From: Erinaceus europaeus
Lineage: Eukaryota > Chordata > Mammalia > Eulipotyphla > Erinaceidae
Direction of reading: 5' to 3'
Length of the DNA: 64,000 bases
Assembly (NCBI RefSeq): GCF_950295315.1
Contig: NC_080177.1
Location: 75,527,786-75,591,785, forward strand
Made by a program: the position numbers and the translations under genes. This document shows positions 3,296-55,517 of the stretch, in pieces. A model generated the notes under the pieces. It made no database searches. It was given only the letters and a program-made list of their open reading frames with translations, and had not been told where the DNA came from. Each line of letters starts with the position of its first letter. The stretch's first letter is position 1.

Positions 3296-3301
3296 ATCTT
3301 C
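3296..3301 (+). repeat. Left 6-bp target-site duplication (ATCTTC)
   Basis: ATCTTC at 3296-3301 is repeated exactly at 4254-4259, directly outside the TG..CA ends of the miniature ERV. A 6-bp duplication is typical of class II (betaretrovirus-like) integrases. Confidence 0.95.
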
Positions 3302-3656
3302 TGTTGTTAAAATTTCGGCGGCTCTAGCTGGGCGGGCTAGCTTCACGGGCGGGTAACAGAGACGTGGAGACAATGGCTGGGCAGGGAAGCTGTATTTCTT
3401 TATTCAGGAACAACGATTCATAAACTAAACCAAACTAATCACCAAACAAAACTCTGCTGCCTCTTTGTCCCTGCGGCGGTGCAAGCACTCTCTCTTACTC
3501 TCAAACTCAGGAACCCCTCCCCAACTCAGGAACTCTCGAACTCTGGAACTCTGGCGGGGTTCCTTGGGGCGGGGCCAAGCGGGCCCACGAAATTAGCAGG
3601 ACTGATCCAATTCTCTTGGCGGGGGAGAACTAGAACCCAATGTAAAGCATACAACA
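3302..3656 (-). repeat. 3' LTR of the miniature ERV (355 bp)
   Basis: It is near-identical to 3883-4253 except in a tandem GAACTCT-type repeat block (3485-3557). It carries a minus-strand AATAAA (CCTGAATAAAGAAATAC, about 3392-3408) as polyadenylation signal. Differences from its partner in the first 180 bp are C/T transitions at CpG-type sites. Confidence 0.93.
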
Positions 3657-3676
3657 ATTCCCCCTTTTCTTTTTAA
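3657..3676 (-). promoter_or_regulatory. Polypurine tract (plus-strand primer site)
   Basis: On the minus strand AAAAAGAAAAGGGGGAAT lies directly upstream of the TGTTGT start of the 3' LTR. This is the expected place and composition for a retroviral polypurine tract. Confidence 0.9.
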
Positions 3677-3804
3677 CTAAATGACTATAGTATCAAGGGT
3701 GTGGGGTGAACAGAAACCTATATCGTACAGGCATTTAAAAAAAAAAACTGGCACAAACATGGAGAAACATGTAAGCAAGTAACAAGAACCAGTGTGTTGC
3801 CAAG

Positions 3805-3880
3805 GCCCGGCTAGCTCAGTCGGTAGAGCATGAGACTCTTAATCTCAGGGTCGTGGGTTCGTGCCCCATGTTGGGCGCCA
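3805..3880 (+). tRNA. Full-length tRNA-Lys(CTT) copy with CCA, captured inside the mini-ERV (not a normal tRNA gene)
   Basis: All 76 positions of a tRNA-Lys(CTT) are present: acceptor GCCCGGC/GTTGGGC, D arm, anticodon loop CTCTTAA (anticodon CTT), T arm and CCA at 3878-3880. Nuclear tRNA genes do not encode CCA, so the source was a mature tRNA, i.e. the reverse-transcription primer. Compared with the standard sequence as I know it there are two changes: A58 to T (3862) and C65 to T (3869). A58T also damages the Pol III B box, while the A box (TAGCTCAGTCGG) is intact. The orientation is opposite to the retroelement. It is probably not a functional tRNA gene. Confidence 0.92.
3863..3880 (-). 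promoter_or_regulatory. tRNA-Lys primer-binding site
   Basis: On the minus strand TGGCGCCCAACATGGGGC is complementary to the 3' 18 nt of tRNA-Lys1,2, with one change from the usual TGGCGCCCAACGTGGGGC. It sits 2 nt after the 5' LTR. Use of lysine tRNA fits class II/HERV-K-like elements. Confidence 0.93.
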
Positions 3881-3882
3881 TT

Positions 3883-4253
3883 TGTTGTTAAAATTTCGGC
3901 GGCTCTAGCTGGGCGGGCTAGCTTCACGGGCGGGTAACAGAGATGCGGAGACAACGGCTGGGCAGGGAAGCTGTATTTCTTTATTCAGGAACAATGATTC
4001 ATAAACTAAACCAAACTAATCACCAAACAAAACTCTGCTGCCTCTTTGTCCCCGCGGCGGTGCAAGCACTCTCTCCAACTCCGGAACTCTCGAACTCTGC
4101 AACTCTTCAACTCTGGAACTCTGACACTCTCCCACTTTGGAACCCTCTCTCGGGGTTCCTTGGGGCAGGGCCAAGCGGGCCCGCGAAAACTAACTGGACT
4201 GATCCAATTCTCTTGGCGGGGGAGAACTAGAACCCAATGTAAAGCATACAACA
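3883..4253 (-). repeat. 5' LTR of the miniature ERV (371 bp)
   Basis: It pairs with 3302-3656. It is 16 bp longer because of extra tandem GAACTCT/CAACTCT units at about 4069-4150. The ends are TGTTGT..ACAACA, and the AATAAA signal is on the minus strand near 3980. Confidence 0.93.
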
Positions 4254-4259
4254 ATCTTC
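4254..4259 (+). repeat. Right 6-bp target-site duplication (ATCTTC)
   Basis: An exact copy of 3296-3301. Confidence 0.95.
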
Positions 4260-4644
4260 TATCACTCACGCAAGTCTACATGTAGATATCTCACCCACTC
4301 TACCACACAAGCCTTGGCTGGCAGTTCACAGCATAGCATCCTGCTGTCACAGGTGTTTTGAGAAAACTTACCAGATACCCACATAAATTCAGGATTATGA
4401 GTGCATCAGAATGATGAATAGAGCAGAAAATGTACAAATAATGGGCTATTTTATTTATCAGATTTGCTGCCTGTGCCAAATCTTTTTAAAAATCTAAGGC
4501 ACACGCAGCTGTCATCAGATCTGTCTGAACCACTCATCCATCAGCCCTTCATTTATACAGCACACACTGGATAGCAGGGCTATAGGTGACTCAAATAATG
4601 TGTGTTCCCTTTTCTCTAAATATTTATTTGTTTATCTACTGACT
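4260..4644. other. Unique DNA, no feature seen
   Basis: No coding or RNA feature was recognised. Confidence 0.5.
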
Positions 4645-54211: not shown

Positions 54212-55299
54212 TTTTCTTTTCTTTTTTTTCTTTTTCTTTTCTTTTTTCTTTTTTTGCTGTTAAAGTGTTTTATTTACAGTTGGAGCCCTTTGAGGACGGC
54301 CCCCATGGGGCTGAGTGATGTTTTAGTACAAGATGACATCTTCAAACCCTACACTGCCCTCGTCCTTATCCTCAGAGAGACCGAGTCCCGGGGCAAGGAG
54401 AGTGTTAGGAAGGATTGAGTTCGCTCCTCCTCATCAGGAGTCCATCATCAGACAGAGGGCGGTGTGGGGGCAGGTAAGCCAACTCTACTTCTCAGAGAAT
54501 TGCTACAAATGCAACTCATATACACAGTAAAGTCAGCACCATCAGGAGCACTTATTGAGGTCATTCAGTACATCAAAGTCTTCAGAAGGGACTTCATCCC
54601 TGTCATCCTAGTCTTGTTTGGGGTCTGCCTCCACTCTGCCTTGGGGGTGTTCATTCCAGTCCACAAAGGAGCTATCAGTCAGGGTCCAATCGCAATTGCT
54701 TTGAGAGGGTACATCCTCTCTGCTTTCAAAGTCCCCACTCTGGCCATCAGCGGGACACTACCCTGGTTTCCATCGAAATTACCTTGAGAACCTTGGGGTT
54801 CTCTACTTCCACAATCAAATGGGATGCTATTTGCAGATCCATTCCTGTTGCCTTGGGCTTCACTATTATAGTCACCAAATGGGAAACCAAAGGAGATACC
54901 TTTTTTGTTGACATGGGAGTCTCCACTCTGCCACTTCAAAAGGATATTATCCCAGATTCTAGTCCATCTGTCTTGGCACTCTCCACACAGGCAACCAAAT
55001 GGGGTACAACTGCAGGTTCCATTCCACCTGCCTTGGGATTCTCCTTTATAACCCCCAAAGGAAATACCAGTCCAGGTTCCATTACAGGTGACTTGAGTGT
55101 CTTCACTCCAGCTGTCCAACAAAACCCTATCCCAGATTCTATAACTGTTGCCTTGAGAACCGGCATTCACATGTCTGGGGACTCCACTCCTGACCCCACA
55201 CAGGGTTTCCATGGAAGCTCCATTCCAGAGGCTTTGTACCCAAGGCCCTATATTGCAATTCCAATGCAGGGGGACATACCAGTCACTGTGGACCTCACA
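54212..55299 (-). pseudogene. Processed pseudogene (retrocopy) of an unrecognised mRNA with about 20-aa W/G-rich repeats
   Basis: Read on the minus strand it ends in AATAAAACACTTTAACAGC followed by an A-rich tail (T/C-rich on plus at 54211-54256), the mark of a polyadenylated mRNA copy. An exact 16-bp target duplication brackets it, and the insertion point TT/AGAAA fits the L1 endonuclease. The coding part (about 55299-54600) is broken into a 208-aa frame plus other frames. It holds diverged units of about 60 nt encoding motifs like QGRWNGT, PFGDYNSEAQG and IPFDCGSREPQG. A 3' UTR of several hundred bases follows. No introns are visible, and the 5' end is truncated. I do not recognise the parent gene. 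Confidence 0.85.
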
Positions 55300-55315
55300 A
55301 ACCACACTGCTTTCT
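55300..55315 (+). repeat. Right target-site duplication of retrocopy
   Basis: AACCACACTGCTTTCT, identical to 54196-54211. Confidence 0.92.
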
Positions 55316-55517
55316 AACCATGCAATTTAAGCAAATTCCTTCCCTTCTCTAAATAAATGTGAGTTTATCTGCAAAAAAAAAAAAATTTTGTCTCCAGTGT
55401 CTAATCTCATCATAATCAAATGGCCACCTTTGACCTGGATCTGTGGTAAGGATCTGATTCACCTGATCTCACTGAATCCCCATCACAGTGGTGTCTGTCT
55501 GGACAGATATGCAGAGT

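What the first reader, a model, noticed from the sequence alone, without database searches (positions are those of the whole stretch)
3302..4253. Miniature class II ERV carrying a complete tRNA-Lys copy between its LTRs
The sequence shows a full 952-bp LTR retroelement: paired LTRs with TGTTGT/ACAACA ends, tRNA-Lys primer-binding site, polypurine tract, exact 6-bp duplications (ATCTTC), and only 226 bp inside. The interior includes all 76 nt of tRNA-Lys(CTT) with CCA, antisense to the element and contiguous with the primer-binding site. Ordinary retroviruses keep only the 18-nt complement. Known analogies are plant TRIMs and Cassandra (which carries a 5S RNA region). A mammalian TRIM-like element with a whole primer tRNA is, as far as I know, not a standard described class. 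It may be a family that moves in trans using an ERVK-like machinery.
Basis: partly seen in the sequence, partly recalled or inferred. Interest (0 to 1): 0.88.

Follow-up and report, generated by a model that had tools for sequence, protein, structure and literature searches.

The report
Retroelement that copied its primer tRNA
A short dead retrovirus-like element in a mammalian genome carries a complete copy of the host tRNA that starts its own DNA synthesis, best explained by the viral copying enzyme running past its normal stop; two other elements of this genome look like the same accident.

Summary
Observation confirmed. Window 3302-4253 is a 952-bp LTR element on the minus strand: 6-bp duplications, paired LTRs, tRNA-Lys primer site, PPT, and a complete 76-nt tRNA-Lys(CTT) complement contiguous with the primer site. 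The proposed miniature mobile family is not supported. In the host genome (40 of 1231 candidates scored) only L003 also matches the whole interior, with a different junction and LTRs. Thirty-eight other matches end within two bases of where the tRNA begins. Of 28 of these with a readable primer site, 27 run into an ordinary leader after 17-18 nt; one, L056, is a third read-through with its own 6-bp duplication. T stands at tRNA position 58, the m1A58 site that normally ends plus-strand strong-stop synthesis, in 3 of 3 copies. Best explanation: reverse transcriptase read through primer tRNA-Lys, then jumped to another template, here deleting about 1.6 kb. T58 is either the misreading scar of m1A58 or the mark of an unmethylatable primer. 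Read-through products are known in vitro; my ten paper searches listed no germline fossil of this kind.

The parts
3296..3301 (.). target site duplication ATCTTC, left copy
3302..3656 (-). 3' LTR of the element (355 bp)
3657..3804 (-). 148-nt 3' segment of the parent family, shared with 38 other scored genomic matches and with L003
3658..3674 (-). polypurine tract AAAAAGAAAAGGGGGAA
   Evidence: only purine run of 12 or more in the interior
3804..3805 (-). junction: complement of tRNA nucleotide 1 joined to the parent's CTTGGCAACACAC, where six relatives read ...CTTCCCTTGGCA (L006 TTTCCCTTGGCA)
3805..3880 (+). complete tRNA-Lys(CTT) copy including CCA, antisense to the element
3862..3862 (+). 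tRNA position 58: T instead of the conserved A (m1A58 site), first base beyond the primer site
   Evidence: also T in L003 and L056
3863..3880 (-). primer-binding site for tRNA-Lys1,2 (one mismatch, tRNA position 65, C to T at a CpG)
3883..4253 (-). 5' LTR of the element (371 bp)
4254..4259 (.). target site duplication ATCTTC, right copy

Best explanation
The element is the integrated product of one faulty reverse transcription of a roughly 2.4-kb non-autonomous class-II-like LTR element primed by tRNA-Lys(CTT). Plus-strand strong-stop synthesis normally stops 18 nt into the primer, before m1A58. [quoted passage not shown] That one jump appended the whole tRNA complement to the 5' LTR and removed about 1.6 kb. 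The 952-bp product kept both LTR ends and was integrated with an ordinary 6-bp duplication. Shown: the anatomy, the junction, parental sequence on one side and tRNA on the other, relatives that stop at 17-18 nt, and T58 in three copies. Inferred: the order of events, the second template, that the parent is non-autonomous (from interior length, and from one 233-aa frame without a Pfam domain), and the chemical cause of T58.
For: The tRNA copy sits where plus-strand strong-stop DNA would be extended: 2 nt inside the 5' LTR, contiguous with the primer site, ending at tRNA nucleotide 1. Thirty-eight of 40 scored genomic matches share the other 148 nt and end within two bases of the junction; the six read there continue into a different parental sequence. 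Interiors of 16 relatives are 1598-1799 bp. Internal control: of 28 relatives with a readable primer site, 24 have a family-type 17-nt site, 3 (L033, L047, L055) an 18-nt tRNA-Lys-type site followed at once by the ordinary leader, and 1 (L056) a 76-nt copy. L056 has a 6-bp duplication GGCTCT and two LTRs; its copy also ends at tRNA nucleotide 1 but joins U5 sequence followed by a second, family-type primer site and the leader. L003 copies about 66 nt and joins another point of the 3' region. T58 is in 3 of 3. A chance change at that site since insertion has probability about 0.019 for the window copy. Published: in vitro transcribed tRNA is copied fully, m1A58 is the main stop, and methyltransferase mutation lets synthesis pass A58 (PMC13191261, section 10 read); m1A causes misincorporation, with low C signal when G follows (PMC4787781, sections 26-27 read).
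Against: Window and L056 may not be independent: beyond the primer site their tRNA copies are identical (0 of 58), and their 5' LTRs outside the array differ by only 16 of 277, so separate origin is favoured only weakly (P about 0.03 for no difference under shared descent). T58 could then be inherited in those two. The same review says the full-length strong-stop product cannot serve as an active template in HIV. The window junction shows at most a short overlap with the parent: one C, or GGC plus a later 5-bp loss (my reading). The two LTRs of this copy differ more (K 0.0385) than its 3' segment differs from six relatives (2-3 of 148), though those six were the best matches. L003 has no clear target duplication. 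The 38 relatives are the top-scoring matches, not a random sample.
Confidence: 0.83

Rival explanations
1. A TRIM-like mobile family in a mammal: LTR, whole tRNA, short interior, PPT, LTR, multiplied in trans by an ERVK-like helper.
For: Size under 1 kb, PBS, PPT and no listed frame longer than 95 aa fit the TRIM description in PMC10886601. L003 has the same general plan.
Against: Only 2 of 40 scored matches (1231 candidates) hold the whole interior, and they differ in junction, tRNA extent and LTR. Against six ordinary copies, no site of the 3' segment is shared by window and L003 alone.
Confidence: 0.07
2. One old read-through event founded a tRNA-bearing lineage; window, L056 and perhaps L003 descend from it, and later template switches or deletions changed what follows the tRNA. 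T58 is inherited, not recurrent. (A variant of the best explanation, not exclusive of it.)
For: T58 in all three; 0 of 58 differences between window and L056 beyond the primer site.
Against: Different sequence follows the tRNA in all three, and in two the change falls at tRNA nucleotide 1, as expected for run-off. L003 LTRs are 69-72% alike over 141-166 bp. The window 3' segment is 2-3 of 148 from six ordinary copies but 10 of 148 from L003.
Confidence: 0.2
3. The primer was a variant tRNA-Lys with U58 that cannot be methylated there; T58 is the cause of read-through rather than its scar. (Also a variant of the best explanation.)
For: 3 of 3 copies have T and none A, G or C. An A58U tRNA-Lys3 mutant inhibited HIV-1 replication (PMC13191261).
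Against: Not tested: such a gene could not be looked for, because the genome search stayed busy. The 18-nt tRNA-type sites in the same family (3 of 28) suggest that the usual primer does stop.
Confidence: 0.25
4. A tRNA gene, tRNA pseudogene or tRNA-derived SINE was inserted into the element by LINE machinery.
For: SINE-like sequences with a tRNA-like head occur in this window (7 matches to a recalled motif).
Against: The 7 SINE-like stretches are 32-51 of 76 identical to the copy; the printed 40-nt flanks show no poly(A) tail and share no repeat longer than 5 nt. CCA is present and the copy is in register with the primer site 2 nt from the LTR. The first T4 run downstream is at 4356, outside the element, so it would be a poor Pol III gene.
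Confidence: 0.02

Closest known systems
Full-length (P1) plus-strand strong-stop product of retroviral reverse transcription (HIV-1 in vitro)
   Same: Complete copy of primer tRNA appended to U5 when the m1A58 stop is absent (PMC13191261, section 10).
   Different: There it is described as not usable for completion; here it appears completed by a jump and integrated in a germline.
Lentiviral and spumaviral primer over-extension sequence
   Same: Primer complementarity continuing past 18 nt (PMC13191261).
   Different: Part of the ordinary genome there, immediately next to the PBS; 58 nt and absent from 27 of 28 readable relatives here.
tRNA-Gly copy between LTRs of a cloned MMLV circle, and tRNA-Gly next to an HIV provirus
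   Same: Reverse-transcribed tRNA joined to an LTR, with deletions in the same study systems (PMC12220202: parts 1-3 of 7 and the first part of the Discussion read; the MMLV paper is known to me only from that text).
   Different: Non-cognate tRNA lacking its first 4-5 nt, at an LTR outer end; here the cognate primer, complete, inside the element at the primer site.
Helenus, Ajax and Cassandra (TRIMp3)
   Same: Short LTR elements holding a small-RNA sequence (PMC10886601: abstract, passages and introduction).
   Different: There the tRNA or 5S sequence lies in the LTRs, Helenus shows no complementarity between it and the PBS, and the families are multicopy.

Membership tests
Class II (ERVK-like) LTR retroelement | 6-bp target duplication, TG...CA LTR ends, tRNA-Lys primer site, PPT (features recalled) | tested here: met
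   L056 also has a 6-bp duplication
Class II (ERVK-like) LTR retroelement | class II reverse transcriptase phylogeny | not testable with these tools
   interior of 226 bp has no room for pol; in relative L008 only its 233-aa frame was scanned, without a Pfam match above cut-off
TRIM | under 1000 bp, two LTRs, PBS and PPT, no mobilisation proteins | tested here: met
   952 bp; longest listed frame 95 aa, frames not scanned for domains
TRIM | a family of copies multiplied in that short form | tested here: not met
   no other same-junction copy among 40 scored of 1231 candidates; the search was not exhaustive
Helenus / TRIMp3 | tRNA-derived sequence inside the LTRs | tested here: not met
   tRNA is between the LTRs
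Helenus / TRIMp3 | Pol III promoter boxes conserved across copies | tested here: inconclusive
   position 58, part of box B as recalled, is changed in 3 of 3 copies; no T4 run downstream inside the element; transcription not testable
Plus-strand strong-stop read-through product | complement of the cognate primer tRNA running from the primer site to the tRNA 5' end | tested here: met
   also L056; L003 stops at about nucleotide 11
Plus-strand strong-stop read-through product | relatives normally stop at 18 nt | tested here: met
   27 of 28 readable primer sites
Plus-strand strong-stop read-through product | direct demonstration that m1A58 was bypassed | not testable with these tools
   T58 is indirect evidence

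The most novel reading that the evidence does not exclude
Mammalian genomes hold a fossil record of failed plus-strand strong-stops: a recurrent class of insertions in which the primer tRNA was copied wholly or mostly, each marked at position 58 by an m1A misreading scar (or by a U58 primer) and rescued by jumps to different templates. If so, the modification state of germline tRNA millions of years ago can be read from genome sequence.
Probability: 0.5. Interest if true: 0.78.

Novelty: new variant of a known kind. Interest (0 to 1): 0.62.

Why it matters
The 18-nt length of the retroviral primer site is attributed to one tRNA methylation. This locus and its two fellows look like natural failures of that stop, preserved in a germline, with the expected base changed in all three. 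They suggest that the full-length product, described as a dead end in HIV, can be completed by a template jump and integrated, and they give a simple sequence signature for counting such events in any genome.

Tried and rejected
Mobile miniature family: rejected as main reading, since no second copy of the same junction was among the scored matches. SINE or tRNA-gene insertion: rejected. Self-encoded primer (the element supplying its own tRNA by Pol III): disfavoured, because position 58, part of box B as I recall it, is altered and the first T4 run lies outside the element. tRNA as part of the ordinary leader: rejected by 27 of 28 readable relatives. RNA folding of the interior and of the tRNA strand was uninformative (z -1.05 and -1.18; the tRNA strand alone did not fold as a cloverleaf). 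Viral-contig scans for an LTR start, for extended Lys1,2 and Lys3 primer sites, for the 18-nt Lys3 site and for a U5 motif found nothing; the 18-nt Lys1,2 site gave one 68%-GC contig without further tRNA match, taken as chance. Stretches about 2.5-12 kb upstream of ten relatives held an LTR in 1 of 10 (L019, no primer site; that relative's own 5' LTR was later found closer, in L029), which led me to the shorter distances. Paper searches: 10 used; one search was swamped by an unrelated word and one search was empty; listings were capped, so absence means not among those listed. One search was rejected for a term with a comma.

Rows dropped before counts: of 38 ordinary matches, 29 had an LTR end 1.2-2.7 kb upstream. 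L025 was unreadable there, leaving 28. Of the other 9, L032 has its LTR closer with a deleted leader, L034 and L037 have the leader without a matched LTR (L037 still shows ATCAACA and a family-type site), and 6 (L043, L045, L049, L050, L054, L057) gave no usable LTR end. Interior lengths were computed for 16 of the 38.

Full report
WHAT IS THERE. The window holds a complete 952-bp LTR element on its minus strand. It has exact ATCTTC duplications, LTRs of 355 and 371 bp, a 226-bp interior, a PPT beside the 3' LTR and a tRNA-Lys1,2 primer site 2 nt inside the 5' LTR. The primer site is the 3' end of a complete 76-nt tRNA-Lys(CTT) copy with CCA, antisense to the element. All 21 stem pairs can form. 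Against the Rfam tRNA consensus the T loop reads GGTTCGTG where A is conserved at position 58. The second difference from the tRNA-Lys(CTT) that I recall (no call gave that sequence) is C to T at position 65, a CpG change. LTR divergence outside the 8-bp array is 11 of 295, K 0.0385, or 4.3-8.8 million years under assumed rates.

THE GENOME SEARCH. With the interior as query, 1231 candidates were found and 40 scored: the window itself, one whole-interior match (L003, 85%), and 38 that cover only the 148-nt part between the tRNA and the 3' LTR, ending at query base 147-149, at 94-98%. Scores ran down to 241 bits while L003 had 276, so a further whole-interior copy of similar identity should have ranked among the 40 (inference); the tool warns that counts are lower bounds.

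THE PARENT FAMILY. In six relatives the sequence beyond the junction is GGCCCCCTCAGGCCTTCC (one change in L006) followed by CTTGGCA, not tRNA. Going upstream, 29 of 38 have an LTR end in the stretch 1.2-2.7 kb away. Interiors are 1598-1799 bp, median 1742, in the 16 measured, so these copies are about 2.4 kb in all and by length non-autonomous. The longest frame of L008 (233 aa) has no Pfam match above cut-off. Of 28 readable primer sites, 24 are of a family type (TGGCGCCCACGTGGACC and close variants) and 3 are 18-nt tRNA-Lys-type sites; all 27 run straight into the same leader (TGACCTGCGCATC and close variants). One, L056, does not. These 38 are top-scoring matches, not a random sample.

THE OTHER READ-THROUGHS. 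L056 reads LTR, AA, the complete 76-nt tRNA complement, 30 nt of U5 ending ACAACA, AA, a family-type primer site, ordinary leader. It has a 6-bp duplication GGCTCT and an LTR pair differing at 14 of 380 sites, K 0.038. The U5 piece is not identical to its own U5 nor to those of the window and six relatives compared, so its template is not identified. L003 has LTRs with K 0.128 between them, copies tRNA from position 76 to about 11, and continues with parental 3' sequence about 22 nt upstream of the window's junction. No clear target duplication was seen. ARAGORN does not call the L003 copy a tRNA. Thus three elements show three different continuations after the tRNA, and two of the three end at tRNA nucleotide 1. 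T58 is present in 3 of 3.

INDEPENDENCE. L003 is well separated: LTRs 69-72% alike over 141-166 bp, and, against six ordinary copies, no 3'-segment site shared with the window alone. Window and L056 are less certain: 5' LTRs differ by 16 of 277 outside the array, the tRNA parts beyond the primer site by 0 of 58, giving P about 0.03 under common descent. I therefore claim at least two events, probably three.

MECHANISM. Established knowledge: plus-strand strong-stop synthesis copies 18 nt of primer and halts before m1A58; in vitro transcribed tRNA is fully copied; mutation of the methyltransferase lets synthesis pass A58; in HIV the full-length product is described as unusable (PMC13191261, section 10). 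m1A read-through leaves misincorporation, with low C signal in the m1A-G context (PMC4787781, sections 26-27); position 59 here is G. For ERVs the authors of PMC7472051 (section 13 read) speculate that tRNA-copied primer sites are inherited about half the time and show that common family sites often mismatch the tRNA, which fits the two site types seen here. [quoted passage not shown] position 58 lies outside the PBS. The inferred chain is: bypass of position 58, run-off at the tRNA 5' end (earlier in L003), transfer of that end to another template (3' region in window and L003, U5 in L056), completion, integration. T58 may be scar or licence; U58 primer genes could not be searched, because the genome tool was busy in 33 of 34 tries.

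COMPARISON AND NOVELTY. Single tRNA captures by retroviruses are on record: a tRNA-Gly between MMLV LTRs, 63-65 nt of tRNA-Asp or tRNA-Glu in HIV nef, and a tRNA-Gly beside an HIV provirus (all as told in PMC12220202). [quoted passage not shown] that paper's introduction lists TRIMs from plants, hymenopterans, cestodes and bivalves, its results add fungi, fish and others, and the word mammal does not occur. Searches for full-length tRNA in ERVs, for mammalian TRIMs and for read-through phrases listed, by title and abstract, no germline element with a complete cognate primer; the listings are capped and the library lacks most subscription journals. Hence 'new variant of a known kind'.

Noticed in passing
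L020-L057: The commonest primer site of the parent family (24 of 28 readable) mismatches tRNA-Lys1,2 and is one base shorter than the 18-nt tRNA-type site in L033, L047 and L055; which tRNA primes the majority, or whether mismatch is favoured, is open.
   Followed up: partly
L008:109-810: This non-autonomous relative has a 233-aa open frame without a Pfam match above cut-off; possibly captured or chance sequence.
   Followed up: partly
3482-3560 and 4063-4146: An 8-bp repeat array (GGAACTCT-like) in the U3 part differs in copy number between the two LTRs and between the two LTRs of L056, perhaps a fast-changing enhancer array.
   Followed up: no
3302-4253: LTR differences of this copy cluster (4 substitutions within 13 sites, P 0.05) and exceed the divergence of its 3' segment from six relatives; gene conversion is possible.
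   Followed up: partly
55287-55486: Match to Rfam DLEU1_1 at exactly the gathering score of 30 bits, beside a diverged repeat with 60-bp spacing at 54791-55064; a weak hint that the window is orthologous to the DLEU1 region. Two overlapping open frames there have no Pfam match.
   Followed up: partly
L032 with L058: A relative with a shortened interior (about 1.2 kb) whose primer site is followed by other sequence than the usual leader, another internal-deletion derivative.
   Followed up: partly
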